Shown one piece after another: positions 22,384 to 63,104 of a stretch of 64,000 nucleotides of DNA. Made by a program: the position numbers and the translations under genes. Numbering within the stretch: the first letter of the stretch is position 1; the number at the start of each line of letters is the position of its first letter. The stretch spans positions 1-64,000 of the forward strand of contig JALOOL010000001.1 of NCBI GenBank assembly GCA_025454425.1, written 5' to 3'. The stretch is from Hydrococcus sp. Prado102 (GTDB lineage: Bacteria; Cyanobacteriota; Cyanobacteriia; Cyanobacteriales; Microcystaceae). Below the pieces are notes generated by a model. The model saw only the letters and a list, made by a program, of their open reading frames with translations, searched no databases and was not told where the DNA came from.

Positions 22384-22446
22384 AACATTAGTTAAAATTG
22401 ATTATGTTCAGCTCCCATTAGCTCGTTAAAGTAAGCGTTTGTCTAA

Positions 22447-23338: not shown

Positions 23339-23477
23339 CTTTGGAATGTTCACCGATAAATTAACTAGAAATTTATTAACGTTTCTAGCCTTCTTTATTA
23401 TTCAAAACTGATGAAGATTGCAAAAAATTAATTGATCGATTAGAAGTAGTTTTATAACTCTCTAATCGATTTAATTA

Positions 23478-23786: not shown

Positions 23787-23798
23787 GAGGGTAGGGAA

Positions 23799-28675: not shown

Positions 28676-28689
28676 CAAGGAGAATTCTG

Positions 28690-30131: not shown

Positions 30132-30173
30132 TTGATTATAGAAACTCAACTTTTTATAATTAATTTCTCGGCA

Positions 30174-32563: not shown

Positions 32564-32570
32564 AAGGGAC

Positions 32571-33059: not shown

Positions 33060-33267
33060 ATTAACTCGTAAAGGATTTAAAGCTTTAATTGATGCTCTTG
33101 GATATGTTGATGCCATTCGGTTTATCAAACAATTTGACCTTGGCGATGGAGACTATACCAAAGAACGCCAGCAATGGCTAGGTCAGTTAAGCCTGGAAGA
33201 TATTTGGACAGACATTCAGCAACGCCAAAGTCAAGCAGAAAATGGAGATAACAACGATCTCAAATGA
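33043..33267 (+). CDS. Small protein overlapping the PIN toxin, putative antitoxin
   Basis: A 74-residue acidic/amphipathic protein starting at ATG 33043 (MIPPIELTRKGFKALIDALG), with GGAGAAGGAGAA upstream inside the toxin gene. It has no recognised DNA-binding fold. The overlap, the size and the partner point to an antitoxin. The C-terminal part (LGQLSLEDIWTDIQQRQSQA) could be a toxin-binding helix. Function is inferred from context only. Confidence 0.55.
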   Translation: MIPPIELTRKGFKALIDALGYVDAIRFIKQFDLGDGDYTKERQQWLGQLSLEDIWTDIQQRQSQAENGDNNDLK

Positions 33268-33302
33268 CTTGAGAAAAAAATACAAGCTTTGAGGATTAAC
33301 TT

Positions 33303-33629
33303 ATGCAACTAGAAGACTATTTCAACTTTTTATCGAACAACGATATTCGCCTAAAAGACTCTCGGATTGGCATCGAAACCATCTTACACGAATACATTTA
33401 TCGCGCTCGGACTCCTGAAGAAATAATCCAACTTTACCCCACCATAACTTTAGAACAAGTCTATGCCACAATTCTTTATTACTTACACAACAAAGACGCT
33501 ATTTCTAAATACATGGCAGACTGGTTAGATTATTGTTTGCGCTCGGCTAGAGAACAAGATGAAAATCCACCCAAACATATTGTTAAACTTCGTCAACTAA
33601 AAACCGAAAAAATTGCAAATAAATTATGA
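33303..33629 (+). CDS. DUF433 domain protein
   Basis: A 108-residue protein with the DUF433 core: SRIGIETILHEYIYRARTPE, then EIIQLYPTITLEQVYATILY. DUF433 proteins are small HTH-type proteins frequent in toxin-antitoxin loci, where some act as antitoxins. It overlaps the next gene by 4 bp, so the three genes 33303-34440 probably form an operon. Confidence 0.72.
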   Translation: MQLEDYFNFLSNNDIRLKDSRIGIETILHEYIYRARTPEEIIQLYPTITLEQVYATILYYLHNKDAISKYMADWLDYCLRSAREQDENPPKHIVKLRQLKTEKIANKL

Positions 33630-33973
33630 CTATTAAAGAACTTTTATTTCAAGAAATCGAATCAACTTCAGAAGAACTTCTCGAAGAAACTTTAGACTTT
33701 TTGAGATTTTTAAAGACCAAGAATATTAAAGCTCAAACACATACAGAAACGGATATTAATTCGTCTGTCCAATCTACAAAACACTTAGCTTTACAAGCGG
33801 CTGCTGTTTCAGATGATACTAATCAACCCATTCAATCGACAGGGCGATCGCTCCTAGAACATCTAAAAACTATTGGTACATGGGAAGGTGATGATGCTGA
33901 AGAATGTTTAAAGAGGGTATATAGCACTCGTGGCAAAGCCCAATTCGATGAGTTCAATCCTTTTGACGAGTGA
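33626..33973 (+). CDS. Putative antitoxin before a PIN toxin
   Basis: A 115-residue protein. The start MTIKELLFQEIESTSEELLE and LDFLRFLKTKN resembles the DUF2281-type antitoxin N-terminus found upstream of PIN toxins. The last part (SLLEHLKTIGTWEGDDAEEC) is like the toxin-binding tail of VapB proteins. Its ATG overlaps the DUF433 stop by 4 bp, and its TGA overlaps the PIN start by one base. Confidence 0.65.
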   Translation: MTIKELLFQEIESTSEELLEETLDFLRFLKTKNIKAQTHTETDINSSVQSTKHLALQAAAVSDDTNQPIQSTGRSLLEHLKTIGTWEGDDAEECLKRVYSTRGKAQFDEFNPFDE

Positions 33974-34440
33974 TGTATTTATTGGATACAAACCATTGCA
34001 GTCGTGCGATTCTGGGCGATTCCGTCATCCTCGACCGTCTTGCCGCTATTAACGATACCTTAGTTGCAACTTGTGTAATCGTGCAAGGAGAACTAATCGA
34101 TATGGCAGAACGTTCTCAGCGCAAGCGGAATAATCTAATCTTAATACAGAGCTTTCTTCAAGGGATTTTCGTTTACAACATTGATGGGACAACGGCTACT
34201 CTTTACGGACAACTCAAAGCCGAACTATTTAAACAGTTCGCCCCCAAAGAAAAAAGCAAACGCAGAAAAACAAAAATGACCGAGCTTGGTTTTGATGAAA
34301 ATGATTTGTGGATTGCTGCGATCGCGAAGCGTCTCCGAAGGAGAATCGCACTACAACACAATCTCACAATAGTCTCAGCAGACAGCGATTTTCAAAGGAT
34401 TCATCAAGTTCAAGCATTGTCTGTTGAATCTTGGGTTTGA
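33973..34440 (+). CDS. PIN-domain toxin with in-frame repeat insertion
   Basis: A 155-residue VapC-like protein. Acidic PIN residues are visible: LLDTNHCSRAI at the start, the Glu of VIVQGELIDMAERSQRKRN, FDENDLWIAAIA, and VSADSDF. Between AIA and LQHNL a 24-bp repeat adds KRLRRRIA. Without it the reading AAIALQHNLTIVSAD would be the normal PIN helix. The insertion keeps the frame but puts five positive charges into a helix that carries an active-site Asp, so the activity may be lost. ATG 33973 overlaps the upstream stop. Confidence 0.68.
   Translation: MYLLDTNHCSRAILGDSVILDRLAAINDTLVATCVIVQGELIDMAERSQRKRNNLILIQSFLQGIFVYNIDGTTATLYGQLKAELFKQFAPKEKSKRRKTKMTELGFDENDLWIAAIAKRLRRRIALQHNLTIVSADSDFQRIHQVQALSVESWV
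34326..34349 (+). repeat. 24-bp palindromic repeat inserted in the PIN gene
   Basis: The inserted unit GAAGCGTCTCCGAAGGAGAA plus TCGC holds the inverted repeat TCTCC-GAA-GGAGA. It sits behind GCGATCGC and ends with a copy of ATCGC, so its removal restores GCGATCGCACTAC. The insertion is exactly eight codons. Confidence 0.7.
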
Positions 34441-34470
34441 ATTTTTAAAATACTCCTGTTGCAGACCATC

Positions 34471-34956
34471 ATGTTAGAAAACGTCATCTCCGATCTCATT
34501 CGCAAACAACGCCCCTACTTTATTATTCAGGGAAATCCCATCAAAGGCACGGGCGATCGCATTTGGCTGGTTTTCAAACATCGAGATGCTGACAATCTGT
34601 TGCGTAATATCGTTACTTTTCTGGGATTAAAAGGCAAGCAGGTTACTCACAAACTGCTGTGTATCGACCCAAAAACCGCTAAAGTTTTTGAATACGGCCC
34701 CCGTCGTCCGGGCAATCTTCCCTCTGCTATCCTGCTGAGGACGGGCAACCTCAAGGCGATTGACAATTTTCTCAACCTTGAAGGCACGGCTACAGAAAAA
34801 GCACTACTAGCAGGCAGTTTTCGCGAACTCGGAAGGCAGCGACGCAAATTTAGCCTACCTGACGAACTCGATAAGTACAACCAACTGTTTGTTAAATGTC
34901 TAGAACGCGCCGTTATTTACCGCCGTTCCAACGAGACGATCTCAGCTTCGAGTTAA
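34471..34956 (+). CDS. Hypothetical protein
   Basis: A 161-residue protein I do not recognise. It starts MLENVISDLIRKQRPYFIIQ, has an alpha/beta-looking core with KGTGDRIWLVFKHRDADNLL and a basic tail (ELGRQRRKFSLPDELDKYNQ). The frame also opens at TTG 34459. It follows the PIN toxin after a 30-bp gap and overlaps the next gene by 61 bp, which is unusual, so one of the two may not be translated as drawn. Confidence 0.45.
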   Translation: MLENVISDLIRKQRPYFIIQGNPIKGTGDRIWLVFKHRDADNLLRNIVTFLGLKGKQVTHKLLCIDPKTAKVFEYGPRRPGNLPSAILLRTGNLKAIDNFLNLEGTATEKALLAGSFRELGRQRRKFSLPDELDKYNQLFVKCLERAVIYRRSNETISASS

Positions 34957-50364: not shown

Positions 50365-50390
50365 TAAAAAACTCTGCTGTTTAGCAGAGT
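50365..50390 (-). terminator. Rho-independent terminator closing the peptide array
   Basis: On the minus strand, ACTCTGCT-AAAC-AGCAGAGT (50390-50371) is followed by TTTTTAT. It is a textbook intrinsic terminator. It sits 34 bp after the last small ORF of the array, so that ORF is likely part of the same transcript. Confidence 0.92.
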
Positions 50391-50423: not shown

Positions 50424-50606
50424 TTAGCGAATATTTCTTTGAACGTAGGAAGCGACACCAACGTCGAGATAGCGTCCGTAGCTATCAAATCTGTCTTGTT
50501 GGGCAATTCTATAAGGACAATTACAAATATCTGCGAGTCCCATGCTAAAGAATGTGACGGAGCTTAATACAATTAAAAATAATGCGATAGTTTTCTGGAT
50601 CGACAA
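50424..50606 (-). CDS. Small exported/membrane peptide ORF at the end of the array
   Basis: A 60-codon frame starting with TTG 50606, with a hydrophobic segment (IALFLIVLSSVTFFSMGLA) that looks like a signal peptide or anchor, then DICNCPYRIAQQDRFDSYGR and YLDVGVASYVQRNIR. I do not recognise it. The upstream 16 codons of the shared array leader read into it in another frame, so its start may derive from a recombination. It is followed by the terminator. No ribosome site is visible before the TTG. Confidence 0.4.
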   Translation of the reverse strand: MSIQKTIALFLIVLSSVTFFSMGLADICNCPYRIAQQDRFDSYGRYLDVGVASYVQRNIR

Positions 50607-50655
50607 AAAGCTCTGAACCAGTCGAACGCAGATCGGAAATTGAAATGTTAGCCAT
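50545..50655 (-). pseudogene. Broken double-glycine leader
   Basis: ATG 50655 opens the array leader, MANISISDLRSTGSELFVDP, then the frame goes into ENYRIIFNCIKLRHIL and stops. The conserved acidic/GG part and any core are missing. It has GGAGA upstream as the other precursors do. It looks like a degraded precursor, or the 5' part of a recombined gene joined to the 50424-50606 ORF out of frame. Confidence 0.65.
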
Positions 50656-50771
50656 TGAAAGTCTCCTTGTTTGTATTGATTAGATAGTTGGAATATAAAG
50701 CGATCGCCCTCAATAATTTCTTACATTATTGATTGATGGTTGATGTGGCGATCGCTACTAATAAAACTGCT

Positions 50772-50984
50772 CTAATCTAGTACTAAGACATCGCCACGCA
50801 AGGATGGAATAAGATATAAAGTATTTCCTGTCGCTTCAACAGTTGTTGGAATATTGCCAGGATTACCATATTTACCTCCTTCTATCCTCATTTCATTATC
50901 AGTTAACTCATTCATGAAACTTTCAGAATCTATAAATAAGACTGACCCAGAAAGATTGAGATCTGCAATTGAAATATTAGCCAT
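50772..50984 (-). CDS. Double-glycine leader peptide 1 (polar core)
   Basis: A 70-residue precursor. The leader is MANISIADLNLSGSVLFIDS-ESFMNELTDNEMRIEGG; cleavage after GG (residue 37) would release KYGNPGNIPTTVEATGNTLY-LIPSLRGDVLVLD. The core is polar at the start and hydrophobic at the end, with no Cys. It is one of eleven minus-strand genes with this leader. Presumed exporter: the C39-type transporter at 57.5 kb. Confidence 0.8.
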   Translation of the reverse strand: MANISIADLNLSGSVLFIDSESFMNELTDNEMRIEGGKYGNPGNIPTTVEATGNTLYLIPSLRGDVLVLD

Positions 50985-51087
50985 TTAAAAACTCTCGACT
51001 TGTGTTGATTAAATGATTTAGATTTAAGGCGATCGCAACTAAAAATTAATGAAGTTTTATAGCGCGATTGCTCTCTTGAAAACTAGC

Positions 51088-51300
51088 CTATCTTTTTACT
51101 TCGACAGGCATAGGCGGACAAACGATCGTGCGAACTCCAACAGGATTTGTTTCCTTATCTCTAAAAATTGGATCGCAGGCGCACAGACCACCATTAATAT
51201 TACCTAAATCGTTTTCAGCTAAAGCTGTCATAAAACTTTCTGTATCGCTGAATAATTCAGCCCCAAGAAATTGTAAATTATCGATTGAAATGTTAGCCAT
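51088..51300 (-). CDS. Double-glycine leader peptide 2 (Cys-containing core)
   Basis: A 70-residue precursor with leader MANISIDNLQFLGAELFSDT-ESFMTALAENDLGNINGG. The core LCACDPIFRDKETNPVGVRT-IVCPPMPVEVKR has three cysteines, two of them in CAC right after the cleavage point and one near the end, so a disulfide or another modification is possible. AAGGAGACTTATC precedes the ATG. Confidence 0.8.
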   Translation of the reverse strand: MANISIDNLQFLGAELFSDTESFMTALAENDLGNINGGLCACDPIFRDKETNPVGVRTIVCPPMPVEVKR

Positions 51301-51379
51301 GATAAGTCTCCTTCGATTGCTTAAAAATTAACTGAGTTTGATGTTAGAAATCGGTTCTAAGCAAAAACTAAATTGTTGC

Positions 51380-51589
51380 CTAGAAAGTTGGCGGGAAAGG
51401 TTGGGGTGGAGGGCTAGGAGGAAAGCCAAGAAAGATTACAGGTATAAGTGTAACTCCATTAGGAAGAAGGACTGGTTCGCCGAGTTTAAATGCTGCAACA
51501 GTACCACCAGAAATCTTGAGTTGTTCGTTTTGCTCTAATTGTTGTATCTGAGTTTCGGGATTCAGATTTTTGATGTGAATTTTAGTCAT
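51380..51589 (-). CDS. Divergent double-glycine peptide with Pro-rich core
   Basis: A 69-residue precursor, started at the ATG 51589. The leader MTKIHIKNLNPETQIQQLEQ-NEQLKISGG shares only the KI-I-NL-x start and the GG end with the others. The core is TVAAFKLGEPVLLPNGVTLI, then PVIFLGFPPSPPPQPFPPTF, unusually rich in Pro and Phe at the end. It interrupts the series of standard leaders, so it is probably exported by the same machinery, but this is less certain than for the others. Confidence 0.65.
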   Translation of the reverse strand: MTKIHIKNLNPETQIQQLEQNEQLKISGGTVAAFKLGEPVLLPNGVTLIPVIFLGFPPSPPPQPFPPTF

Positions 51590-51766
51590 TTTAGAAATCC
51601 TGTTCAATTCCTAATTCTATTATTAACATTTGCTTTTGAAAAAGAGAGGTTTTTGCTATTGTTTTTCAGACATAATTTTCTAACTAAACCAGTCATTTTT
51701 TTATTAAAATAAAATCGCGATCGATAATTAAATTAAACGATCGCGATCGCGCCTCGAATTGCTTGC

Positions 51767-51943
51767 CTAAACTATCCACGACATGATTTCTGGATCGCTT
51801 GGTTGGGTTGGAATCACACTTCCACCAAGACCGCCATTAATAGTTCCTAACTCATTAGCAACTAGATCGTTCAAATAACTTTCCGAATCGAAAAACAACT
51901 CAAAACCTGAAGATTGTAAGTCGTAAATACTAATAGTAGCCAT
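51767..51943 (-). CDS. Double-glycine leader peptide 3 (short core)
   Basis: A 58-residue precursor, start ATG 51943. The leader is MATISIYDLQSSGFELFFDS-ESYLNDLVANELGTINGG and the core is LGGSVIPTQPSDPEIMSWIV, only 20 residues. The frame runs further upstream without a conserved leader, so I use the ATG with the leader motif. Confidence 0.78.
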   Translation of the reverse strand: MATISIYDLQSSGFELFFDSESYLNDLVANELGTINGGLGGSVIPTQPSDPEIMSWIV

Positions 51944-51974
51944 CTTTTTTCCTCTACATAAACGACAATAAAGT

Positions 51975-52637
51975 TTATTGGATCGCAACGCCATTTTCAG
52001 TAAGGCGAATCTGATTGAATGGAACGCCCGCAAAGGATTCCAGATTGTTTTGTGCGGCTTGACGAAGTTGAGTTTGTGTATCGACATCTCCCTGCTGTTG
52101 TGCGTATTGAAAGGCGAGATACATCATTGCACCCATTGTTCCCAAACCTTCCGCTATCGATTGTTGCTCCCCCGCACTTGCTGTCTGAAACTGACCGTTT
52201 TGAGTCAGTAACTGACTGAATTGGTTGTAGATTGCCCTGCTGACAGAATCGGGAGGTTCTTCGCTTTGTCCAGTCGCGATCGCATAGTTGACAATGGTAA
52301 AAAAAGTCATCGCAGTGGCGAGATCGCTAGCAGGTAAAGCTACTGATGCAGATGCTTCTTTGTATGCTTGCAATGCCAGATCGTACTCTTCATCAGAGAT
52401 GGCAGGACTGGGACTGCTATTATTTATTTCTGAATCGAAAGATTCTTCTGTGGGTTCCTCGTATTCTTCGCTTCGAGATTCAACTTCGCCACCATTAATA
52501 ATTTGTCGCCTCATAACGCCGTAGTCATACCAACTAGGCATAGCAAACGGGCTATATTGAGCTAATGTTGGCAGTGCAAAACTTATCGGCAATGCAACCG
52601 CAGAAACCACTGCAACGATTGTTAATCCTCTTTTCAT
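51975..52637 (-). CDS. Secreted protein within the peptide array
   Basis: A 220-residue protein with a Sec signal peptide (MKRGLTIVAVVSAVALPISF, then ALPTLAQ). After a Glu-rich linker (SRSEEYEEPTEESFDSE) comes a helical domain with YDLALQAYKEASASVALPAS and LGTMGAMMYLAFQYAQQQGD, ending RLTENGVAIQ. I cannot name the family; it resembles secreted cyanobacterial proteins labelled DUF6683, from memory and uncertain. It lies between precursors 3 and 4 on the same strand; the start ATG 52637 is chosen from the signal peptide. Confidence 0.6.
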   Translation of the reverse strand: MKRGLTIVAVVSAVALPISFALPTLAQYSPFAMPSWYDYGVMRRQIINGGEVESRSEEYEEPTEESFDSEINNSSPSPAISDEEYDLALQAYKEASASVALPASDLATAMTFFTIVNYAIATGQSEEPPDSVSRAIYNQFSQLLTQNGQFQTASAGEQQSIAEGLGTMGAMMYLAFQYAQQQGDVDTQTQLRQAAQNNLESFAGVPFNQIRLTENGVAIQ

Positions 52638-52728
52638 CCACAACACCTAGACACGATATCTGTATTACGATTGACAAGTGCGATCGGATTTCAATTAGTA
52701 GTTTGCGAGTTAATGAAGTAAAGTCACC

Positions 52729-52752
52729 TGTAGGGGCGCATGGCGTGCGCCC
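52729..52752. repeat. Copy of the 24-bp hairpin element
   Basis: Identical over 24 bases to the copy at 13943-13966 (TGTAGGGGCGCATGGCGTGC, then GCCC). The hairpin stem is GGGCGCA/TGCGCCC. Confidence 0.8.
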
Positions 52753-52774
52753 GATATTTGTATTTCATTTTTCT

Positions 52775-52963
52775 CTAATGAAGCCGAATTGGTATATACG
52801 AACGCACTAAAAATTGACAAGCTTGGGAAGATGTAAAATAAGACATATCTTCTCCACCTTGAACTTTTAATTCATCATTGGATAGATCTTGCAAGAAACT
52901 TTCGGAATCGATAAATAATTCAGTACCAGCACCATTGAGGTTTGAAATAGAAATTTTAGCCAT
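52775..52963 (-). CDS. Double-glycine leader peptide 4
   Basis: A 62-residue precursor, ATG 52963. The leader is MAKISISNLNGAGTELFIDS-ESFLQDLSNDELKVQGG and the core EDMSYFTSSQACQFLVRSYI-PIRLH has a single Cys. The core has an amphipathic middle. An upstream-open frame adds no conserved sequence, so it is not used. Confidence 0.78.
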   Translation of the reverse strand: MAKISISNLNGAGTELFIDSESFLQDLSNDELKVQGGEDMSYFTSSQACQFLVRSYIPIRLH

Positions 52964-53060
52964 TAGAAAATCTTTGATTGATATTGAGTAAATTGTTGAC
53001 GATCGAAGCGATCGCGATCGCCCCAAGACATCACCTAATGCTAAAAAGCATTAGATTCAA

Positions 53061-53258
53061 TTACCGCACGGTAGGTTGAATTGTACAAAATGGAGAATCA
53101 ATTGCTGTAATAACTCCTATTTCGTGCATGATTCCAATCCCGCCTCGAATTCTATTAGCGAATAAATCTTTATTAGAAAGTTCGCGCATATAACTTTCTG
53201 AGTCGGCAAATAACTCAGTACCAGTTACGTGCAAATTAGAAATTGAAATGTTAGCCAT
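53061..53258 (-). CDS. Double-glycine leader peptide 5
   Basis: A 65-residue precursor. The leader is MANISISNLHVTGTELFADS-ESYMRELSNKDLFANRIRGG, slightly longer than the others before GG. The core IGIMHEIGVITAIDSPFCTI-QPTVR is mixed polar/hydrophobic with one Cys. AAAGGAGATTC precedes the ATG. Confidence 0.8.
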   Translation of the reverse strand: MANISISNLHVTGTELFADSESYMRELSNKDLFANRIRGGIGIMHEIGVITAIDSPFCTIQPTVR

Positions 53259-53433
53259 AATGAATCTCCTTTGATGTCCTGAAAATGATGTGTAATGACA
53301 ATATTTGTGTTAAGTGGATAGGTTTGAAGTGAGAGCGATCGCAACTCAAATTAACTTTTGTATCAGTAAATAATCGACAATATATCGAGAAGATGAATTG
53401 AGTAAACTGTCGCGATCGCACTACAATTTCTTG

Positions 53434-53643
53434 TTAACAATCTTCTGGAGCAAAACAGATTATCGGATCATCAGGAATCAAAACAATGGGTGCAGTAACT
53501 ACAGGAACTGATTCAGCTTTAATTTGCATTCCACCATTAATAAATGCTAGTTCGTTATTAGTTAATTCACCCATAAAACTTTCTGAATCTGTCAATAATC
53601 CAGAACCATTTAGATTGAGGTCAAAAATTGAAATGTTAGCCAT
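53434..53643 (-). CDS. Double-glycine leader peptide 6
   Basis: A 69-residue precursor. The leader is MANISIFDLNLNGSGLLTDS-ESFMGELTNNELAFINGG and the core MQIKAESVPVVTAPIVLIPD-DPIICFAPEDC is acidic and ends in two Cys six residues apart (CFAPEDC), which could form a small disulfide loop. Confidence 0.8.
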   Translation of the reverse strand: MANISIFDLNLNGSGLLTDSESFMGELTNNELAFINGGMQIKAESVPVVTAPIVLIPDDPIICFAPEDC

Positions 53644-53765
53644 GATAAAACCCTTGGTTAGAAATGAATCAACAAGTTAAAAAATTGCATCAAACAGATA
53701 CTGTATTAGATATACGAACAAGAGGTTAAATTGGATTTTAGGATCTAATATTCAAGTTATTCCGC

Positions 53766-53969
53766 TTACATGATGATTTCAACAATGACTACAGCTAGCG
53801 TAATACCAGCACTTACAGCAGTAGCATAAATCAGTGAAGCTAGTGGAGTACCGTTCCCATAAACCATAGATGCGAATTCCACATCTGTAAGCTCGTATAG
53901 ATAGCTTTCATCATCAGCAAACAGATTAGAGCCGGCTATGGTCAAATCAGAAATTGAGATATTAGCCAT
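53766..53969 (-). CDS. Leader peptide 7 without canonical GG (hydrophobic core)
   Basis: A 67-residue precursor. The leader begins normally (MANISISDLTIAGSNLFADD-ESYLYELTDVEFASMVYG), but the GG is replaced by GN (MVYGNGTP). The core TPLASLIYATAVSAGITLAV-VIVEIIM is strongly hydrophobic, with small residues in a GxxxA-like pattern. The GN would slow or prevent cleavage by a C39 peptidase if GG is really required. Confidence 0.75.
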   Translation of the reverse strand: MANISISDLTIAGSNLFADDESYLYELTDVEFASMVYGNGTPLASLIYATAVSAGITLAVVIVEIIM

Positions 53970-54087
53970 GAGAATTACATCTTTTATTGATGTCAGTTAG
54001 AAAGGATTTAATCTGAATCTGCGATCGCAATCTTGAGTGAGAAGATTGCTAGACAACGCGATCGCAGCTATTGAGATTATTCGTTAG

Positions 54088-54291
54088 CTAGTTGTGAATC
54101 TGGGTAAGGGCAAACCCTACACAACCACTTGCTATTGCAGTAGCAACATAAAGAACACAAAAAGGTGAAGTACCACCTTGAATTTTGTTAAGCACAAAGT
54201 CGGATTCAGAAAGTTCATGCAGATAGCTCTCATTATCAATAAATAAATTAGAGCCAGCAGGATAAAGATCGGAAATTGCAATTGTAGCCAT
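54088..54291 (-). CDS. Double-glycine leader peptide 8 (hydrophobic core)
   Basis: A 67-residue precursor. The leader is MATIAISDLYPAGSNLFIDN-ESYLHELSESDFVLNKIQGG and the core TSPFCVLYVATAIASGCVGF-ALTQIHN is hydrophobic, with two Cys 12 residues apart and small-residue spacing (A-x-A-S-G). The core is similar in length and composition to leader peptides 7, 9, 10 and 11. Confidence 0.8.
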   Translation of the reverse strand: MATIAISDLYPAGSNLFIDNESYLHELSESDFVLNKIQGGTSPFCVLYVATAIASGCVGFALTQIHN

Positions 54292-54339
54292 TAAAATTTT
54301 CTCCCAGAATAGCTATAAGTTAAATCAACACTAATCTCA

Positions 54340-54528
54340 TTACCAATGGCGATAGATTTCACCAGCAACAACGCTTGCTAAGAAACTTACTGCCACAAAA
54401 CAAGGAAGAGTGCTACCACCTTGAGTTGTAGTAAACTCTATGTCTGAAAGCTCCCTTAAATAACTTTCATTGTCTGAGATAAGTTGAAAACCACTTGGAC
54501 GAAGATCGGAAATTGCAATATTAGCCAT
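54340..54528 (-). CDS. Double-glycine leader peptide 9 (hydrophobic core)
   Basis: A 62-residue precursor, ATG 54528 after GGGAGAAATTCTC. The leader is MANIAISDLRPSGFQLISDN-ESYLRELSDIEFTTTQGG and the core is STLPCFVAVSFLASVVAGEI-YRHW. The open frame continues upstream into a duplicated non-coding block, so it is not used as N-terminus. Confidence 0.8.
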   Translation of the reverse strand: MANIAISDLRPSGFQLISDNESYLRELSDIEFTTTQGGSTLPCFVAVSFLASVVAGEIYRHW

Positions 54529-54575
54529 GAGAATTTCTCCCAATTGTAAGTACAAAAAATTGAAAATATTTTTAT

Positions 54576-55034
54576 CTTGGCGATCGCCAAATAACAAATG
54601 CGAGAAAAACTTCTCTGAAATTATTGTTAAATCAGAGCATTTTTTAAGCATTCACTGCTATAAACATCCGTGTTTACCTGAATAATACCCAATACCAAAT
54701 GTTATTAGTGCTACACAAGCGGATGCTATACATAGACCGGAAGTTCCGCCATTGATTTTACTAAACTCAAAGTCTCCATCGGAAAGCTCTCGCATATAAC
54801 TTTCATCATCGCTAAATAGCTCAGAACCTGTCAAACGCAGATCGAAAATTGCAATATTAGCCATTGATTTTCTCCTAATTTAAGGAAGACCAATTGAAAG
54901 TGTTTTTATCTTGGAGATCGCCAAGTAACAAATACGAGAAAAACATCTCTGAAATTATTGTTAAATCAGAGCATTTTTCAAGCGTTCACTGCTATATACA
55001 TCCATGTTTACCTGAATAATACCCAATCGCTAAA
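54576..55034. repeat. 334-bp tandem duplication unit within the hydrophobic peptide group
   Basis: About 125 bp starting at 54576 (CTTGGCGATCGCCAA...) is repeated with few changes from 54910 (CTTGGAGATCGCCAA...), a period of 334 bp. The copies include the 3' ends of leader peptides 10 and 11 and the intergenic sequence after them (CTCTGAAATTATTGTTAAAT and then CAGAG, which itself can form a CTCTGA/TCAGAG hairpin). Confidence 0.8.
54658..54864 (-). CDS. Double-glycine leader peptide 10 (hydrophobic core, GYYSGKHGC end)
   Basis: A 68-residue precursor. The leader is MANIAIFDLRLTGSELFSDD-ESYMRELSDGDFEFSKINGG. The core TSGLCIASACVALITFGIGY-YSGKHGCL has four Cys in total and ends in GYYSGKHGCL. 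This ending recurs in leader peptide 11, so it is conserved while the middle differs. AGGAGAAAATCA precedes the ATG. Confidence 0.82.
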   Translation of the reverse strand: MANIAIFDLRLTGSELFSDDESYMRELSDGDFEFSKINGGTSGLCIASACVALITFGIGYYSGKHGCL

Positions 55035-55192
55035 AGACATATTCCTGTTGCTACACAAGCAATAGAAGTACCTCCTTTTATATAATTAATATGATTCGAC
55101 TCAAGATCGGAAAGTTCTTGTAAATAGCTTTCGTCATCACTAAATAGTTCGGAACCTGTAAAATAGAGATCTGAAATCGCAATATTAGCCAT
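54992..55192 (-). CDS. Double-glycine leader peptide 11 (hydrophobic core, GYYSGKHGC end)
   Basis: A 66-residue precursor, the first gene of the array in transcription order. The leader is MANIAISDLYFTGSELFSDD-ESYLQELSDLESNHINYIKGG and the core TSIACVATGICLLAIGYYSG-KHGCI has three Cys. It is the duplicate of leader peptide 10 with a shifted core. Any promoter for the whole array should lie in the 500 bp upstream. Confidence 0.82.
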   Translation of the reverse strand: MANIAISDLYFTGSELFSDDESYLQELSDLESNHINYIKGGTSIACVATGICLLAIGYYSGKHGCI

Positions 55193-55693: not shown

Positions 55694-55981
55694 ATGAGCA
55701 AACGACTAAAAAATGATGAGCGAGTCACGGCGAGGATTAGCACATCAGTCAAAGAAACCTTGCAACAAGCGGCTGACTTGTCCGGTGCGACCTTAAATCA
55801 GTTTCTCGTCCAATCTGCCTTAAAGGAAGCGCAAAGAATTTTGGAAGCGGAAAGAACGATTGTTTTATCGCAACAAGATGCAAATAAAATCTTCGCTCTA
55901 ATTGAAAATCCTCCAATTGTTCGAGACAAGCTGAAAGCAGCATTTGAGAAACACGAGCAATTTTTCCGTGAAGATCGTTGA
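55694..55981 (+). CDS. DUF1778 antitoxin, TacA-like
   Basis: A 95-residue ribbon-helix-helix protein. Its N-terminus (RVTARISTSVKETLQQAADL, then SGATLNQFLVQSAL) is the RHH DNA-binding fold of the DUF1778 family, and the C-terminal part (FALIENPPIVRDKLKAAFEK) is the toxin-binding tail. It represses its own operon and neutralises the acetyltransferase toxin. The toxin gene overlaps it by 14 bp. Confidence 0.88.
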   Translation: MSKRLKNDERVTARISTSVKETLQQAADLSGATLNQFLVQSALKEAQRILEAERTIVLSQQDANKIFALIENPPIVRDKLKAAFEKHEQFFREDR

Positions 55982-56483
55982 ATTACTAAAAAAATCTCAC
56001 AATCGCTCTCAATTCGATTGCGGCAATTCTGCACTCAACCAATTTCTTTCTCAGACAGCAAGACAACACATTCAGAAAGGCATTTCTCGGACATGGGTTT
56101 TGATTGATAGTGCCCGTCCCTCCGAGATTATTGGTTTTTTCACTCTAACGCTATGTGAAATCAGAGTGGAAGCACTACCGCCCCAGTGGGCTAAAAAATA
56201 TCCTTCTCAAATCCCTGGGGTAAAACTAGCTCGTTTGGCAGTAGATAAAAACTGGCAACGTCAGGGAATAGGGGAAATCCTGATAGTCGAGGCGATGCAG
56301 CGATCGCAAATAGTAGCAGAAAACGCAGGTGGCATTGGTTTGTTTGTCGATGCTAAAAATGAAGTAGCCCAATCCTATTACTTGCGTTATGGTTTCGAGA
56401 GTCTGGAAAGTTCTCCATTACAAATGTTTCTTCCTTTCCAAACAATTGCAGCACTTTTAAAAAGGCTTCCCGAATCAGAATAA
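55968..56483 (+). CDS. GNAT acetyltransferase toxin, TacT-like
   Basis: A 171-residue GNAT enzyme. TacT-type toxins acetylate aminoacyl-tRNA and block translation. It shows FDCGNSALNQFLSQTARQ near the start and the acetyl-CoA site VKLARLAVDKNWQRQGIGEI, then GLFVDAKNEVAQSYYLRYGF and the tail ESSPLQMFLPFQTI. I start at GTG 55968 inside the antitoxin frame; the open frame upstream is not conserved. It is placed between the peptide array and the exporter genes. Confidence 0.85.
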   Translation: MKIVELLKKSHNRSQFDCGNSALNQFLSQTARQHIQKGISRTWVLIDSARPSEIIGFFTLTLCEIRVEALPPQWAKKYPSQIPGVKLARLAVDKNWQRQGIGEILIVEAMQRSQIVAENAGGIGLFVDAKNEVAQSYYLRYGFESLESSPLQMFLPFQTIAALLKRLPESE

Positions 56484-56875: not shown

Positions 56876-57406
56876 TTGAAAAAGCAAGGTCAATACCTAA
56901 CGTTATTTCAGCGAAAGCTATTGCTAAAAGCACTACAAAGTGAATCTCGTCCCCAATACCGCCAAAGAATAGAGATAATGCTCCTAGCAGACAAAGGATA
57001 CTCAGCGACACAAATATGCAACGAACTAGGGTGCGCTCAAGAAACCGCTCGTTATTGGCTGGAAATGGCGCGTTCTGGCTTAATACATCAGTGGAATCAA
57101 CATAACATCGGTCGCCCCAAGAGAGTGAGTGAAGAGTATTGCGATCGCTTGCACGAGTTAGTCACCCATAGTCCTCGCCAGTATGGTTATTGTTTCGATC
57201 GCTGGACGGCGGGATGTTTGAGCAAACATCTGGCAAAAGAATTTGCCATTGAAGTTAGCGAACGCCATATCAGCAGATTACTAAAAGAAATGGGACTTTC
57301 TACCCGTCAAAAAGTTAATAAGCGAATGGGGATTGCGATTGATGACTTGTCACCTAATCAATCGAACGAACCTTATTATTTTTTGAATTTAATGTCAATT
57401 TCGTAA
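56876..57406 (+). CDS. Helix-turn-helix protein (IS630/homeodomain-like), possible regulator
   Basis: A 176-residue protein. The N-terminal half has an HTH (YSATQICNELGCAQETARYW, then LEMARSGLI) similar to the DNA-binding part of IS630-type transposases. The second half has another HTH-like segment (YGYCFDRWTAGCLSKHLAKE, then FAIEVSERHISRLLKEMGLS). No DDE catalytic domain follows. TTG 56876 has AAGGAG nine bases upstream. It precedes the C39 exporter and may control it; alternatively it is a remnant of an insertion sequence. Confidence 0.65.
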   Translation: MKKQGQYLTLFQRKLLLKALQSESRPQYRQRIEIMLLADKGYSATQICNELGCAQETARYWLEMARSGLIHQWNQHNIGRPKRVSEEYCDRLHELVTHSPRQYGYCFDRWTAGCLSKHLAKEFAIEVSERHISRLLKEMGLSTRQKVNKRMGIAIDDLSPNQSNEPYYFLNLMSIS

Positions 57407-57429
57407 CGATTACCAATCGTTCAGATTTT

Positions 57430-57543
57430 TATAGCGTTTTTGCCCCCCTACCCCCCAATTCTGGAGGGAAAATTCTTAAAGTCCCCCAAGATTGGGGGAT
57501 TTAGGAGGCATACCGATAATCTACTCAACTGAAAATTGTTATT
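57430..57543. repeat. Right copy of the 115-bp direct repeat
   Basis: ATAGCGTTTTTGCCCCCCTA, then CCCCCCAATTCTGGAGGG, AAAGTCCCCCAAGATTGGGG, and ending CTACTCAACTGAAAATTGTT. It corresponds to the left copy at 56573-56688 with roughly one change in five. It ends directly at the exporter's ATG. Confidence 0.75.
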
Positions 57544-60537
57544 ATGGTTGTTTCACATCAAAATTTAAATACGCCTTTAATTCAAGCTTTTGGCGAAGAA
57601 TTCGCTAATTATTCTCAGCTTCTACAAACCCAAGAATTTCCACCAGGTAAACCATTCTGGAATGCAGCAGATGCTAAACCAGGAATTTATCTCGTTCTTT
57701 CAGGTAAAGTAAGATTATTAGATGCAAGCGATCGCCCGATCGTCTCTTTAGATGCTGGAAAGTCTTTTGGAGAGATGACCCTATTTCCCGAAGCATCCTG
57801 TCAACCCTACAGTGCTAGAGCGTCTTTTAAGCTAAAGTTGGGCTATCTTTCAGGAAAAGATTTAGAAACGATCCTGCGCAAACATCCCACTATTCGCGAT
57901 CGCTTTTATCAACGCGCGATCGAGCAAGACTTATTAGTATTGTGCCGTCAAATCGATACACTGCAAGAAGTTTCTTCAGAAGCGATATTACAGATGTTGC
58001 CTCTACTGGAGAAGCAAACATTCCCCACTGGAAAACTATGTTTGTTGCGCCAAGGCGAAGCAATAAATTCATCTGGAGAGAAATTCATAGCGGGTAGATT
58101 TTATCCCAGTCAGTTACTACAAAACGATCCCACAAATGAGACAGAACTTTATTGTCTCAGCGAAGAAAATTGGCAAAAAGCACTCGAATATGTTCCCCAA
58201 TTAGCAAATTTGGTCGAACATAACGCCACTTCTACCATCAATTATCCTCCTGCGGGTAGCGTTACCAAAGAAGTTATCAGATCCCCCGAACCCCTTCCCA
58301 GCAAAGAACCGCCAAAAGCCAAAATCCGCAAAGCTTATTTTCCCAGTCCAAGCATTAGAGTCAATCATGTATGGCAGCGATTTACGCGACGCTACCCTTA
58401 TTTTGAACAACAAAGTGCCTCCGATTGCGGTGCAGCATCGTTAGTCATGGTGGGACGTTATTGGGGGAAACGATTTAGCGTCAATCGCTTGCGAGAACTG
58501 GCAAATGTCGATCGCAGCGGTGCATCATTGCGAGGACTAGCAGAAGCAGCAGAAAGTATCGGTTTCTCCACTCGTCCGGTGAAAGCGGGTTTGAAGAAAC
58601 TAGCAGAACAAAACTTACCTGCGATCGCACACTGGGAAGGCAAGCATTATATAGTAGTGTATGAAATTACAAAAGATCGCGTCATTGTTTGCGATCCTGC
58701 GATCGGACAGCGCAATCTCACTCACGATGAATTTAAAGAAGGATGGACGGGATACACTTTACTGCTACAACCCACCGCCTTACTACAAGATGCGCAAGAA
58801 GAACGCCAACCTTTCTGGCAATTCTTTGAATTAGTAAAACCTCACGGACTCGTTTTATTTGAAGTCTTAATTTCCTCAATCCTGATTCAGATTTTGGGAT
58901 TGGTGACACCCTTATTTACACAACTACTCTTAGATCGCGTCGTCGTTCAACGCAGTAACTTAACCTTAACCGCGATTGGAATAGGAATGTTACTCTTTGG
59001 ACTCTTTCGAGTTGCGATCGTGGGATTGCGACAGTATCTACTGGATCACACCGCACAAAAGGTTGACACGGCATTAATTATCGGATTTATCAGTCACACC
59101 TTTCGCTTACCCCTAAAATACTTTGAATCTCGCTATGTAGGCGACATCATTTCTAGAGTCCAAGAAAACCGTAAAATCCAACGTTTTTTAACCGGAGAAG
59201 CACTTTCAATCTTTCTCGACTTGCTGACAGTGTTTATCTATGTTGGGTTAATGTTCTGGTATAGCTGGCAGATGGCATTACTAACCTTAGTGGTCGTACC
59301 TCCCTTTGCAATACTAACCCTCGTGGCGACTCCCTTTCTCAAACGAATTTCGCGAGAGATTTTTGCAGCCATTACCGTTGAAAGTAGCTATCTCATTCAA
59401 TCTCTTACAGGCATTCGCACTGTTAAATCCATGTCAATCGAACAAAGCGTTCGCTGGCATTGGGAAGAGTTGTTAAGTAAATCTGTAAAAACTAGCTTCG
59501 GCGGACAAGTGATTGGCAATCGCTTGCAAATTTTTAGCGGTGTAATCCAAACGGTTGTAACCACGGGATTGTTATGGTTCGGTGCATGGCAAGTCATTCA
59601 AAATCAACTCACCGTCGGACAATTGGTAGCTTTTAATATGTTGTTGGGCAATGTTATCAGTCCATTTCAACGTTTAACAGTTCTCTGGAACGACTTACAA
59701 GAAGTCTTAATCGCTGTGGAACGAATTAACGATGTTATCGATGCCGAACCCGAAGAAGACTTACACAAACAAGTCCGTCAGTCTTTACCACCCGTTAAAG
59801 GCAATATTCGCTTCGAGCAAGTCACCTTTCGCTACAATCCCGATAGCGATGCCAACACCCTCGAAAACATTAGCTTCGAGGTTAAACCAGGAGAAATGGT
59901 AGCACTGGTAGGGCGTAGCGGTTCTGGGAAAACCACCATTTCTAAACTACTGCTGGGACTATATACGCCAACACAGGGCAAAATTTTAATCGATGGATAT
60001 GAAGTAGAAAGTCTTTCACTGCGATCGCTGCGCCAACAAATCGGAGTCGTCGATCAAGATACCTTTATGTTTGGCGGTACGATTCGAGAAAACATCAGCG
60101 TCGGCTATCCTAGTGCCAGTTTAGATGAAGTCATCGTCGCCGCACAACTCGCAGGCGCACATCAATTCATTCAAGAATTGCCGATGGGATACGAAACCCA
60201 AATGGGAGAAGGCGGCGGCTTACTTTCTGGAGGACAAAGACAGCGAATTGCGATCGCCCGTGCCCTACTAGGAAATCCTCGTATATTAATCCTAGACGAA
60301 GCCACTAGCAGCCTCGATGCCGAATCGGAACGCATCATTCAAAACAATCTCACTACCATTCTGCGCGGTCGCACGACATTTGTAATCGCCCATCGTCTCT
60401 CAACCGTGCGTAACGCCAACAAAATCCTCGTTCTCGACAGAGGCGTACTCATCGAATCGGGTTCTCACGAAGAACTGATGGCAAAACGAGGACATTACTT
60501 CTACCTCAACCAACAACAGCTAACCAGCGTAGGCTAA
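57544..60537 (+). CDS. C39-peptidase ABC exporter with N-terminal cyclic-nucleotide-binding-like domain
   Basis: A 997-residue peptide-processing exporter (PCAT). Residues about 20-130 are a cyclic-nucleotide-binding-like domain (LVLSGKVRLLDASDRPIVSL, SFGEMTLF); a second, degenerate one may follow at 150-230. The C39 peptidase (about 283-410) has its catalytic Cys at about 295 in QQSASDCGAASLVMVGRYWG, the His in HWEGKHYIVVYE and the Asp in VIVCDPAIG. The ABC part has about six spans, then Walker A GRSGSGKTT, signature LSGGQRQRIAIARAL, Walker B ILILDEATSSLD. Members of this family cut leaders after GG and export the cores. It is the likely exporter of the array at 50.5-55.2 kb. Confidence 0.95.
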   Translation: MVVSHQNLNTPLIQAFGEEFANYSQLLQTQEFPPGKPFWNAADAKPGIYLVLSGKVRLLDASDRPIVSLDAGKSFGEMTLFPEASCQPYSARASFKLKLGYLSGKDLETILRKHPTIRDRFYQRAIEQDLLVLCRQIDTLQEVSSEAILQMLPLLEKQTFPTGKLCLLRQGEAINSSGEKFIAGRFYPSQLLQNDPTNETELYCLSEENWQKALEYVPQLANLVEHNATSTINYPPAGSVTKEVIRSPEPLPSKEPPKAKIRKAYFPSPSIRVNHVWQRFTRRYPYFEQQSASDCGAASLVMVGRYWGKRFSVNRLRELANVDRSGASLRGLAEAAESIGFSTRPVKAGLKKLAEQNLPAIAHWEGKHYIVVYEITKDRVIVCDPAIGQRNLTHDEFKEGWTGYTLLLQPTALLQDAQEERQPFWQFFELVKPHGLVLFEVLISSILIQILGLVTPLFTQLLLDRVVVQRSNLTLTAIGIGMLLFGLFRVAIVGLRQYLLDHTAQKVDTALIIGFISHTFRLPLKYFESRYVGDIISRVQENRKIQRFLTGEALSIFLDLLTVFIYVGLMFWYSWQMALLTLVVVPPFAILTLVATPFLKRISREIFAAITVESSYLIQSLTGIRTVKSMSIEQSVRWHWEELLSKSVKTSFGGQVIGNRLQIFSGVIQTVVTTGLLWFGAWQVIQNQLTVGQLVAFNMLLGNVISPFQRLTVLWNDLQEVLIAVERINDVIDAEPEEDLHKQVRQSLPPVKGNIRFEQVTFRYNPDSDANTLENISFEVKPGEMVALVGRSGSGKTTISKLLLGLYTPTQGKILIDGYEVESLSLRSLRQQIGVVDQDTFMFGGTIRENISVGYPSASLDEVIVAAQLAGAHQFIQELPMGYETQMGEGGGLLSGGQRQRIAIARALLGNPRILILDEATSSLDAESERIIQNNLTTILRGRTTFVIAHRLSTVRNANKILVLDRGVLIESGSHEELMAKRGHYFYLNQQQLTSVG

Positions 60538-60682
60538 AACTTTATAGTTCAAAGTTCAAAGTTCAAAAATCATTATTCTTTACTTGTCCCCCTTGTCTAC
60601 CTTGTCTCCCCTCTCTCTCCTCTCTCTGCGCCTCTGCGTCTCTGCGTGAGATCTAAAAAACCTCGTATAAAGCCAAAAGACC

Positions 60683-62245
60683 ATGCCAAACCTCCCCGAC
60701 ACCCAACTCAAATCCATCCCAGAAACAACCGACTACGACATTGTAGAACCGACTCCCGAACCTTCCCCAACCGACGAACTAATCCTTCCTAGCGTACAGC
60801 CAACGCGAACCGAGGATCGCGATTGGTCGCATTCCGCCCAAGACTTACTCGATGGACTGCCTCGCGTCTGGACGAGGGGATTATTGTATATGTTAATTGG
60901 ATTTGCCGCGATCGCGATTCCTTGGGCATCTATCTCAAAAGTAGACGAAACCGGAAGCGCCAGAGGACGATTAGAACCGAAAGGCATGGTCTATCGACTC
61001 GATTCACCCGTTACGGGGGGAGTCGCCCAGATTCGAGTCAAAGAAGGACAAACCGTTAAAGCGGGACAAGTTTTAATTGAGTTAGACTCGGAAATCGTTC
61101 GGACTGACTTGCAACAAGCTGAAGAAAAGCTACAAGGACAAGTCGCTCAATTGTCCCAATTAAATCTCCTCAAAGACCAGTTATTTATAGCACTAGCAAC
61201 TCAACGACAGCAAACGCAAGCACAAGATTTAGAAGTTCAGGCGCAAATCGAACAGACCCAACAAAATCTCAACACCCTCAAAACCTCCTTTTTTCTACAA
61301 AAAGAAGAAAAATTAATACAAGTCAACCAAGCACGAAAAGCGATCGAACACGCTCAAACTACTAGTAGATTAACCGCTCTCAGCGTAGATGTCGCTCAAC
61401 GAGAAGTCGAACGCTTTCAAAAAGCCTTTCAAGAGGGAATTGTCACCCAGGTTAACGCTGTAGAAAAGCAAGAGATCTTGCAAGAAAGACAGAGAACATT
61501 GGCGCAATCGCAAGCTGATATCGAACAAGCACAATTGAGTTTAGCAGAACAAGAAAGCAGCTACCAACGAACGATTCAACAAGCAGAAGCCGATATCGAA
61601 CAAGAAAAGTTGCGTCTCAAAGAAAAAGAAAAGAACTATCAAAGCTGGATTAATTCTGCCAAACTTGCCATTCTCAAAAGCGAAGAAGAATTGAAAAATC
61701 GGGAACGAGAAGTCACGGGACTTAAAGCAGAAATCGCCCAAAGTAGAAGTCAAATTGCTTCGCTCAAACTTCAGTTAGGGCAAAGAATGATAAAAGCGCC
61801 CGTCAATGGTACGGTTTTTGAATTGGCGATCGCGCGTACTGGTGCAGTGGTACAACCCGCCCAAACCATTGCTCAAATTGCCCCAGAAAATACGCCACTC
61901 GTACTGAGGGCACAAATGCCCAGTCAAGAAACGGGTTTTCTGCGTTTAGGAATGCCTGTCAAGCTCAAATTTGATGCTTATCCTTTTCAAGATTTCGGAG
62001 TGGTTGAAGGTCAGCTTACCAAGATTTCTCCAGATTCTAGAATGCAAGAAACGCCTCAAGGACAAATAGAAGTATTTGAAATAGAAGTTACTTTAGATCG
62101 CTCCTACATTCAAACTCAAAATAAACGAGTTACCCTAACCGCAGGACAAACAGCAACAGCAGAAGTTATTATCCGACAGCGCCGCATTATCGATTTTATT
62201 CTCGATCCGCTTAAAAGGTTACAAGAAGGCGGTTTGGAACTTTAA
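60683..62245 (+). CDS. HlyD family membrane fusion protein
   Basis: A 520-residue periplasmic adaptor linking the exporter to an outer-membrane channel. It has one transmembrane segment near residue 75 (LLYMLIGFAAIAIPWASISK), a lipoyl-type half-motif (VTGGVAQIRVKEGQTVKAGQ, then VLIELDSEIVRTDL), a coiled-coil hairpin of over 200 residues rich in Gln/Glu, and the return motif (MIKAPVNGTVFELAIARTGA). The N-terminal 70 residues are acidic and Pro-rich. It lies 145 bp after the exporter, separated by short repeats. Confidence 0.93.
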   Translation: MPNLPDTQLKSIPETTDYDIVEPTPEPSPTDELILPSVQPTRTEDRDWSHSAQDLLDGLPRVWTRGLLYMLIGFAAIAIPWASISKVDETGSARGRLEPKGMVYRLDSPVTGGVAQIRVKEGQTVKAGQVLIELDSEIVRTDLQQAEEKLQGQVAQLSQLNLLKDQLFIALATQRQQTQAQDLEVQAQIEQTQQNLNTLKTSFFLQKEEKLIQVNQARKAIEHAQTTSRLTALSVDVAQREVERFQKAFQEGIVTQVNAVEKQEILQERQRTLAQSQADIEQAQLSLAEQESSYQRTIQQAEADIEQEKLRLKEKEKNYQSWINSAKLAILKSEEELKNREREVTGLKAEIAQSRSQIASLKLQLGQRMIKAPVNGTVFELAIARTGAVVQPAQTIAQIAPENTPLVLRAQMPSQETGFLRLGMPVKLKFDAYPFQDFGVVEGQLTKISPDSRMQETPQGQIEVFEIEVTLDRSYIQTQNKRVTLTAGQTATAEVIIRQRRIIDFILDPLKRLQEGGLEL

Positions 62246-62360
62246 TTAATACCATTTTGCAAAAGTAGCAACCAAACCGAGCTTATTGATGTTGGGTTTC
62301 GTTACTACTACAACTCCTAATTTTCATAATTCATAATTCATCATTCATCATTTCCCAATC

Positions 62361-63104
62361 ATGTTAAAAACGTTTTCAATTTCCCAAGCAGAAATTATTC
62401 ATCAAATTAAACTTTCTTGCCAAGTTCCTATTTTAATTGAAGGAATTATTGCTCGCAAAATTATTGCTTCGACAGCACAAGAATTGGGCATTAAAGTAGA
62501 AACTGATGAACTTCAACAAGCAGCCGATCGCATTCGCTTGCTCAACCGACTCGAAAAATCTGAAGATACTTGGTCGTGGCTGCAAAAACATCATTTGTCG
62601 CTCGATGAATTCGAGGAATCCATCTATGCCAGTACGCTCGCTACTAAACTAGCACAACATTTATTTGGCGATCGCGTCGAACTTTTCTTTGCCGAACGCA
62701 TCCTAGATTATACCCAAGCCGTTCTCTACGAAGTTGTTTTGGATGACGAAGACTTGACAATGGAGTTATTTTATGCACTACAAGAAGAAGAACTCACTTT
62801 TCCTGAAGTTGCCCATCAATACATCCAAGAACCAGAATTGCGGCGGGTTGGAGGCTATCGCGGCACGCTGCGCCGTAGCGAACTCAAACCAGAGATTTCT
62901 GCGGCTGTTTTTGCTGCTAAGCCGCCTCAAATTCTCAAGCCAATTAAGACTTCTAAGGGCATTCATTTAATTCTAGTCGAAGCAATTATTCAACCAACAT
63001 TAGATACTGCCTTGAGTTATAAGATTTTAAACGATCTATTTTCTGCATGGCTCAAGCAACAAATCGCGCAAGTTGAAATCGCGATCGATCTTGTTACATC
63101 GTGA
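62361..63104 (+). CDS. Parvulin-type peptidylprolyl isomerase of the exporter cluster
   Basis: A 247-residue protein of SurA/PpiC type. The N-terminal half is helical (SQAEIIHQIKLSCQVPILIE; ELQQAADRIRLLNRLEKSED). The parvulin domain (about 130-225) contains LTFPEVAHQYIQEPELRRVGGYRGTLRR (split over two parts) and ends PIKTSKGIHLILVEAI, which is the PPIC signature. No signal peptide is seen. Isomerases of this type accompany C39 exporters in cyanobacteria and may chaperone the peptides or the export complex. Confidence 0.8.
   Translation: MLKTFSISQAEIIHQIKLSCQVPILIEGIIARKIIASTAQELGIKVETDELQQAADRIRLLNRLEKSEDTWSWLQKHHLSLDEFEESIYASTLATKLAQHLFGDRVELFFAERILDYTQAVLYEVVLDDEDLTMELFYALQEEELTFPEVAHQYIQEPELRRVGGYRGTLRRSELKPEISAAVFAAKPPQILKPIKTSKGIHLILVEAIIQPTLDTALSYKILNDLFSAWLKQQIAQVEIAIDLVTS

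What the first reader, a model, noticed from the sequence alone, without database searches (positions are those of the whole stretch)
50545..55192. Array of at least eleven paralogous double-glycine peptides with unrelated cores
Eleven minus-strand genes share a leader (MA(N/T/K)I(S/A)I..L...G..L..D.ES(F/Y)(M/L)..L...GG) of 37-41 residues, but their cores are unrelated except for peptides 10 and 11. Seen directly: shared 5' ends, changing 3' ends, own ribosome sites, one terminator at the end. Known: C39 exporters cut after GG and export cores. Inference: a diversified cocktail of secreted peptides (bacteriocins or signals) made by 5'-conserving, 3'-diversifying duplication. The leader does not match the Nif11-type or nitrile-hydratase-type leaders I know, and there is no YcaO, lanthipeptide synthetase or radical-SAM gene in the window, so the peptides may be unmodified. 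This looks like a poorly described peptide family.
Basis: partly seen in the sequence, partly recalled or inferred. Interest (0 to 1): 0.9.

Follow-up and report, generated by a model that had tools for sequence, protein, structure and literature searches.

The report
Cyanobacterial class V lanthipeptide-type precursor array
This is a row of eleven small genes whose products carry the same export tag but different payloads; it belongs to an already reported, biochemically untested family of cyanobacterial secreted peptides whose partner modifying enzymes, missing here, sit elsewhere in the same genome.

Summary
Eleven intact minus-strand genes (50772-55192) share a 37-41 residue double-glycine leader and, except for the first two, have unrelated cores. 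There is also a truncated twelfth leader (50587-50655) and a GG peptide with a different leader (51380-51589). A divergent operon, HTH gene - long-type C39 exporter - HlyD - SurA (56876-63104), lies next to them. The family is not undescribed. Of 73 named cyanobacterial loci with this leader, 60 also encode an LxmK-like kinase and a HopA1 lyase, the class V lanthipeptide dehydratase pair. In 390 sampled genomes the leader and HopA1 co-occur (55 of 57 leader genomes, 55 of 68 HopA1 genomes). This matches 'Family 1A' of Eyles et al. 2021 and 'type-B' LanA of Liang et al. 2022. The window lacks the pair, but the same genome has three copies, each beside more peptides with this leader. In relatives with this gene order the pair lies just downstream of the peptides, exactly where homology to the nearest species begins (50577) behind the truncated copy. 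Most likely this is a class V-type precursor array that lost its dehydratase and is matured in trans, or exported unmodified. It is a new member of a known kind.

The parts
54992..55192 (-). precursor P1: leader 41 aa, core TSIACVATGICLLAIGYYSGKHGCI
54658..54864 (-). precursor P2: core TSGLCIASACVALITFGIGYYSGKHGCL, tandem relative of P1
54340..54528 (-). precursor P3: core STLPCFVAVSFLASVVAGEIYRHW
54088..54291 (-). precursor P4: core TSPFCVLYVATAIASGCVGFALTQIHN
53766..53969 (-). precursor P5: GG replaced by YG|NG; hydrophobic core
53434..53643 (-). precursor P6: acidic, Pro-rich core
53061..53258 (-). precursor P7
52775..52963 (-). precursor P8
51975..52637 (-). DUF6683 protein with an apparent signal peptide, interrupting the array; no relative found in 73 related loci
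51767..51943 (-). precursor P9
51380..51589 (-). GG peptide with a different leader (MTKIHIKNLNPETQIQQLEQNEQLKISGG), Pro-rich core
51088..51300 (-). precursor P10
50772..50984 (-). precursor P11
50587..50655 (-). truncated twelfth leader (about 23 aa), broken at the junction with sequence of the nearest species
50577..50578 (.). breakpoint: homology to nearest congeneric genome (G411) begins at 50577; the small gene there has lost its start
50371..50390 (-). terminator-like hairpin with T run after the array
56876..57406 (+). transposase-derived HTH protein; directly upstream of the exporter in many relatives, probable regulator
57544..60537 (+). long-type peptidase-containing ABC exporter (cNMP-binding + C39 + ABC)
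60683..62245 (+). HlyD-type adaptor
62361..63104 (+). SurA-like PPIC rotamase

Best explanation
The array encodes precursor peptides of the cyanobacterial HopA1/phosphotransferase-associated RiPP family, the putative cyanobacterial branch of class V lanthipeptides. One conserved leader serves recognition by the dehydratase pair LanK/LanY and by the C39 exporter. The cores are free to diverge after duplication. The long-type C39 exporter with HlyD and SurA cleaves after Gly-Gly and secretes the cores (inferred by homology). In this genome the local cluster has lost its LanK/LanY genes: the array is cut inside a twelfth leader at exactly the place where relatives carry them. Maturation, if any, must come from one of three LanK/LanY pairs elsewhere in the genome, acting in trans on the shared leader. 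Shown: leader family, gene content, genomic linkage, breakpoint, enzyme pairs in the same genome. Inferred: dehydration of Ser/Thr, cleavage and export. The biological role (antagonism, signalling or matrix) is unknown.
For: Leader linkage to the enzyme pair: 60 of 73 named loci hold both the LxmK-like kinase and HopA1 within about 10 kb. 55 of 57 leader-bearing genomes carry HopA1 against 13 of 333 without the leader (Fisher p about 1e-51), and 44 of 60 leader clusters lie within 10 kb of HopA1. Same genome: all three HopA1 genes lie beside an APH kinase and beside peptides of this leader; the two kinases tested weakly match NCBIfam LxmK. Exporter linkage. The window PCAT has cNMP, C39 and ABC domains and keeps the C39 Cys and His (sequence). 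Six of seven relatives with the window's divergent exporter-peptide layout have the kinase/HopA1 directly downstream of the last peptide; the seventh contig ends there. In the window that spot is the 50577 breakpoint. Core Ser+Thr is 20% against 12% in long ORFs of the same loci. Literature: PMC8153245, PMC9486802, PMC3140520.
Against: No LanK/LanY match was found in the window and no YcaO or SPASM enzyme among the larger window genes scanned. Trans maturation is untested. Three window cores have no Cys, so they could not form lanthionines, and window cores are only mildly Ser/Thr-rich (15%). P5 lacks the GG site. A deletion is inferred from comparison, and an insertion or transfer of a partial cluster would look the same. 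Identity with 'Family 1A'/'type-B' rests on matching descriptions, not on comparing their supplementary sequences.
Confidence: 0.72

Rival explanations
1. The peptides are exported unmodified by the neighbouring C39-HlyD-SurA system and act like EbfG1-4 of Synechococcus elongatus (small GG proteins secreted by the C39 transporter PteB that build a biofilm matrix) or like class II bacteriocins.
For: The exporter is adjacent and the window has no maturation enzyme. 16 of 60 leader clusters in sampled genomes lie away from HopA1. EbfG secretion and amyloid formation are experimentally known (PMC4997328, PMC9981879). Some family cores look beta- or amyloid-like, and one is a LysM domain.
Against: Leader and HopA1 co-occur almost perfectly across genomes and enzyme pairs are present in this genome. 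For bacteriocins: window cores have charge -4 to +1 and there is little room for immunity genes between peptides.
Confidence: 0.2
2. The array is a decaying remnant: LanK/LanY were deleted, P5 lost its GG, copy 12 is truncated, and foreign genes (TacA/GNAT pair, DUF6683) have inserted; few or no products are made.
For: Truncated copy and breakpoint. The array is absent from three congeneric genomes. TacAT and DUF6683 have no counterpart in 73 related loci.
Against: Eleven leaders are intact with pN well below pS, the exporter, adaptor and SurA are intact, and most genes have plausible ribosome sites.
Confidence: 0.2
3. The peptides are intercellular signals analogous to a C39-exported pheromone family.
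For: Long-type exporters with a cNMP domain include HetC, required for heterocyst differentiation (PMC10986499).
Against: Eleven unrelated cores in one array is unlike pheromone systems; no receptor gene was recognised nearby.
Confidence: 0.07

Closest known systems
Cyanobacterial HopA1-associated 'Family 1A' precursor peptides (Eyles et al. 2021, PMC8153245) / 'type-B' class V LanA (Liang et al. 2022, PMC9486802)
   Same: Restricted to cyanobacteria, conserved GG leader, hypervariable cores, several non-identical precursors per cluster, associated with a HopA1 and phosphotransferase pair
   Different: In this window the enzyme pair is absent from the cluster and found only elsewhere in the genome; their supplementary sequences could not be compared directly
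Group I/II cyanobacterial bacteriocin clusters (Wang, Fewer and Sivonen 2011, PMC3140520)
   Same: Long-type CAP_ED-C39-ABC exporter, HlyD and SurA with dense precursor arrays (one to sixteen copies)
   Different: Their named precursor families are NHLP, N11P, HetP and DUF37; the window peptides would fall in the unnamed 'Other' class
Characterised class V lanthipeptides (cacaoidin, lexapeptide, pristinin A3)
   Same: APH-like kinase LanK plus HopA1-like lyase LanY act on a leader-core precursor
   Different: Actinobacterial type-A precursors with conserved C-terminal Thr/Cys; no double-glycine leader with C39 export that I know of; the cyanobacterial kinase scores far below the LxmK cut-off
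Prochlorosins
   Same: Conserved leader with hypervariable cores matured by a promiscuous enzyme in marine picocyanobacteria
   Different: Nif11-type leader and LanM-type enzyme (ProcM); the window leaders do not match the Nif11 model
EbfG1-4 / PteB of Synechococcus elongatus (PMC4997328, PMC9981879)
   Same: Small GG proteins exported by a C39 transporter
   Different: No lanthipeptide-type enzymes reported there; matrix function; sequences not compared here

Membership tests
Cyanobacterial HopA1-associated RiPP precursors (Family 1A / type-B LanA) | Conserved leader ending in double glycine with highly variable core | tested here: met
   ten of eleven window peptides have GG
Cyanobacterial HopA1-associated RiPP precursors (Family 1A / type-B LanA) | Family encoded near a HopA1 and phosphotransferase pair | tested here: met
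   60 of 73 loci, 55 of 57 genomes; in own genome at C51, C62, C456
Cyanobacterial HopA1-associated RiPP precursors (Family 1A / type-B LanA) | This very array has the enzyme pair in its own cluster | tested here: not met
   No HopA1 or LxmK-like kinase match in the window. This is a property of the cluster, not of the precursor family
Cyanobacterial HopA1-associated RiPP precursors (Family 1A / type-B LanA) | Leader sequence identical in type to the published logo | not testable with these tools
   Supplementary figures not held
Class V lanthipeptides | Thioether rings/dehydroamino acids made by LanK/LanY | not testable with these tools
   Needs mass spectrometry
Class V lanthipeptides | Kinase passes the LxmK equivalog cut-off | tested here: not met
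   73-76 bits against cut-off 315; so I claim it works like a class V system, not that the product is a class V lanthipeptide
C39-exported double-glycine peptides | Adjacent exporter with C39 domain and catalytic Cys/His | tested here: met
   PF03412 at 4e-40; SASDCGAAS and GKHYIV motifs in the domain
C39-exported double-glycine peptides | Linkage of leader family and C39 exporters across genomes | tested here: met
Nif11 or NHLP leader families | Match to NCBIfam leader models | tested here: not met
   No match at E up to 1 for all eleven apart from a chance-level bacteriocin IIb hit; a Nif11 peptide elsewhere in the genome does match its model
Class II LanM lanthipeptides | LanM dehydratase domain in genome | tested here: inconclusive
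   PF13575 not found, but the control genomes did not ring either

The most novel reading that the evidence does not exclude
The leader is a general cargo tag shared by several genomic precursor arrays of one cell: peptides encoded at an exporter-only locus are dehydrated in trans by LanK/LanY pairs encoded elsewhere and then exported, giving a dispersed combinatorial class V-type system in which unrelated cargo can be attached to the tag (including, in one Nostoc, a LysM domain).
Probability: 0.35. Interest if true: 0.55.

Novelty: new member of a known kind. Interest (0 to 1): 0.38.

Why it matters
It corrects a tempting misreading. Judged from the window alone, the peptides look like an undescribed unmodified family; judged across genomes, they belong to a large, biochemically untested cyanobacterial branch of class V-type RiPPs. 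The split between an exporter-only locus and remote enzyme pairs makes it a convenient place to test whether one leader directs both dehydration and C39 export, and how tolerant the enzymes are to unrelated cores.

Tried and rejected
Pfam and NCBIfam matches of the peptides themselves: none meaningful. Plasmid collection: one weakly similar Nostoc plasmid only. Literature search for leader motif strings: nothing. LanM search: uninformative because the control did not ring. I first took the HTH gene at 56876-57406 for an insertion-sequence fragment and rejected this: a relative lies directly upstream of 27 of 46 C39 exporters. The MvdD-type ATP-grasp gene beside the C51 peptides is in only 1 of 73 related loci, so I treat it as a neighbour. 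An APH-family kinase at window 2095-3111 did not match the LxmK-like kinases and is 48 kb away, so I do not count it. The wide alignment A2 could not seed the genome-contig scan, so a five-sequence alignment was used, which favours close leaders. Structure prediction was not used: the open question is chemistry, not fold.
Full report
Observation. The eleven genes are real. They share an N-terminal leader of 37-41 residues with eleven invariant positions through L27 and, in ten of eleven, a Gly-Gly end (P5 at 53766-53969 reads YG|NG). At the DNA level all 55 gene pairs are alike over the leader, but only two pairs over the core. Mean pS is 0.67 and mean pN 0.29 over the leader. This means old duplicates with purifying selection on the leader, not a recent 5'-copying event. 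Only the two 5'-most cores are related by BLASTP. A genome search finds a truncated twelfth copy at 50587-50655 and about seven further confident members on other contigs.

Surroundings. Divergent from the array lie an HTH gene (56876-57406), a long-type exporter with cNMP, C39 and ABC domains (57544-60537), HlyD (60683-62245) and a SurA-like rotamase (62361-63104). This is the group I/II layout of Wang et al. 2011 (PMC3140520), who already reported dense arrays of up to sixteen precursors. The HTH gene has a relative directly upstream of 27 of 46 exporters, so it is probably part of the exporter operon and not mobile debris. A TacA/GNAT pair (55694-56483) and a DUF6683 gene (51975-52637) have no counterpart in 73 related loci and look like local insertions.

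Distribution. The leader model matches 57 of 390 sampled cyanobacterial genomes of the class and 73 named loci, from Nostoc, Calothrix, Microcystis, Chamaesiphon, Moorena, Fischerella and others. C39 exporters lie in 43 of 73 loci, and in 32 of 42 loci with about 20 kb of sequence. In sampled genomes 32 of 60 leader clusters lie within 20 kb of a C39 gene against about 4% expected. That last count is a lower bound, because contigs are short and weak C39 hits were not listed.

What the family is. The other leader loci of this genome (C51, C62, C456) each carry an APH-family kinase followed by a HopA1-domain protein. The two kinases tested have LxmK of class V lanthionine synthetase as their best NCBIfam match, below its cut-off. 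Across 73 loci, 60 have both genes. Across 390 genomes, 55 of 57 with the leader have HopA1 and 13 of the other 333 do. The published facts fit. Eyles et al. 2021 (PMC8153245) describe Family 1A: 570 peptides in 183 clusters, exclusive to cyanobacteria, conserved leader with double glycine, highly variable C-termini, several per cluster. Liang et al. 2022 (PMC9486802) describe cyanobacterial type-B LanA and show that the homologous CaoK and CaoY phosphorylate and then eliminate to dehydrate Ser/Thr. I therefore file the window peptides in that family by description and linkage; direct comparison with the supplementary sequences was not possible.

Why the window looks enzyme-free. In seven loci with the same divergent exporter/peptide layout, six have the kinase and/or HopA1 genes downstream of the last peptide, and in the seventh the contig ends there. 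In the window that position is a breakpoint. Homology with the nearest congeneric genome (G411) starts at 50577, directly behind the truncated twelfth leader, and the small gene that is whole in G411 has lost its start. Three congeneric genomes have no leader peptide at all, and in G410 dnaG occupies this side of the conserved flanking genes. The simplest reading is that the cluster lost its LanK/LanY half at this junction (or arrived without it). The flanks do not allow me to tell deletion from partial insertion.

How it works. By homology: leader recognition by LanK/LanY (in trans here), Ser/Thr phosphorylation and elimination, possible thioether formation with Cys (8 of 11 window cores have Cys), C39 cleavage after Gly-Gly, and export through the PCAT-HlyD pathway. 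Core Ser+Thr is enriched in the family (20% against 12%), moderately so in the window (15%). Cores P1 to P4 begin with a [ST][ST].{1,2}C motif seen in 23 of the family's cores, a plausible ring site. None of these steps has been shown for this family in what I could read. Function remains open; family cores range from hydrophobic helices and Thr-Val repeats to Cys-rich, Lys/Ser-rich and LysM cargo.

Limits. The genome is a 533-contig assembly (91.9% complete). The linkage sets come from searches with this leader and favour close leaders.

Noticed in passing
window 21112-34956: Block with a phage-type integrase, Prim-Pol/DUF3987 primase, a family B DNA polymerase and a Type ISP restriction-modification protein: looks like an integrated mobile element.
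   Followed up: no
window 51380-51589: A GG peptide with a second, unrelated leader and a Pro-rich core inside the array.
   Followed up: partly
window 55694-56483: TacA-like antitoxin and GNAT toxin-like gene pair between array and exporter, not found in 73 related loci.
   Followed up: partly
window 56876-57406: Transposase-derived HTH protein conserved directly upstream of long-type C39 exporters (27 of 46), a candidate regulator.
   Followed up: yes
L061: A family leader fused to a LysM domain (core GSWETVLKGDSLFLLADIF...LIHPGQRLYIPCA), evidence that the leader can carry an ordinary protein domain.
   Followed up: partly
L018:6810-9827 (own genome C48): A lone peptide of this leader next to two Nif11-class peptides and a nif11-class radical SAM maturase 3.
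   Followed up: partly
L017:270-1843 (own genome C51): MvdD-family ATP-grasp ligase directly beside two peptides of this leader.
   Followed up: partly
window 52734-52752: Palindromic GGGCGCACGCCATGCGCCC repeat between P8 and the DUF6683 gene.
   Followed up: no
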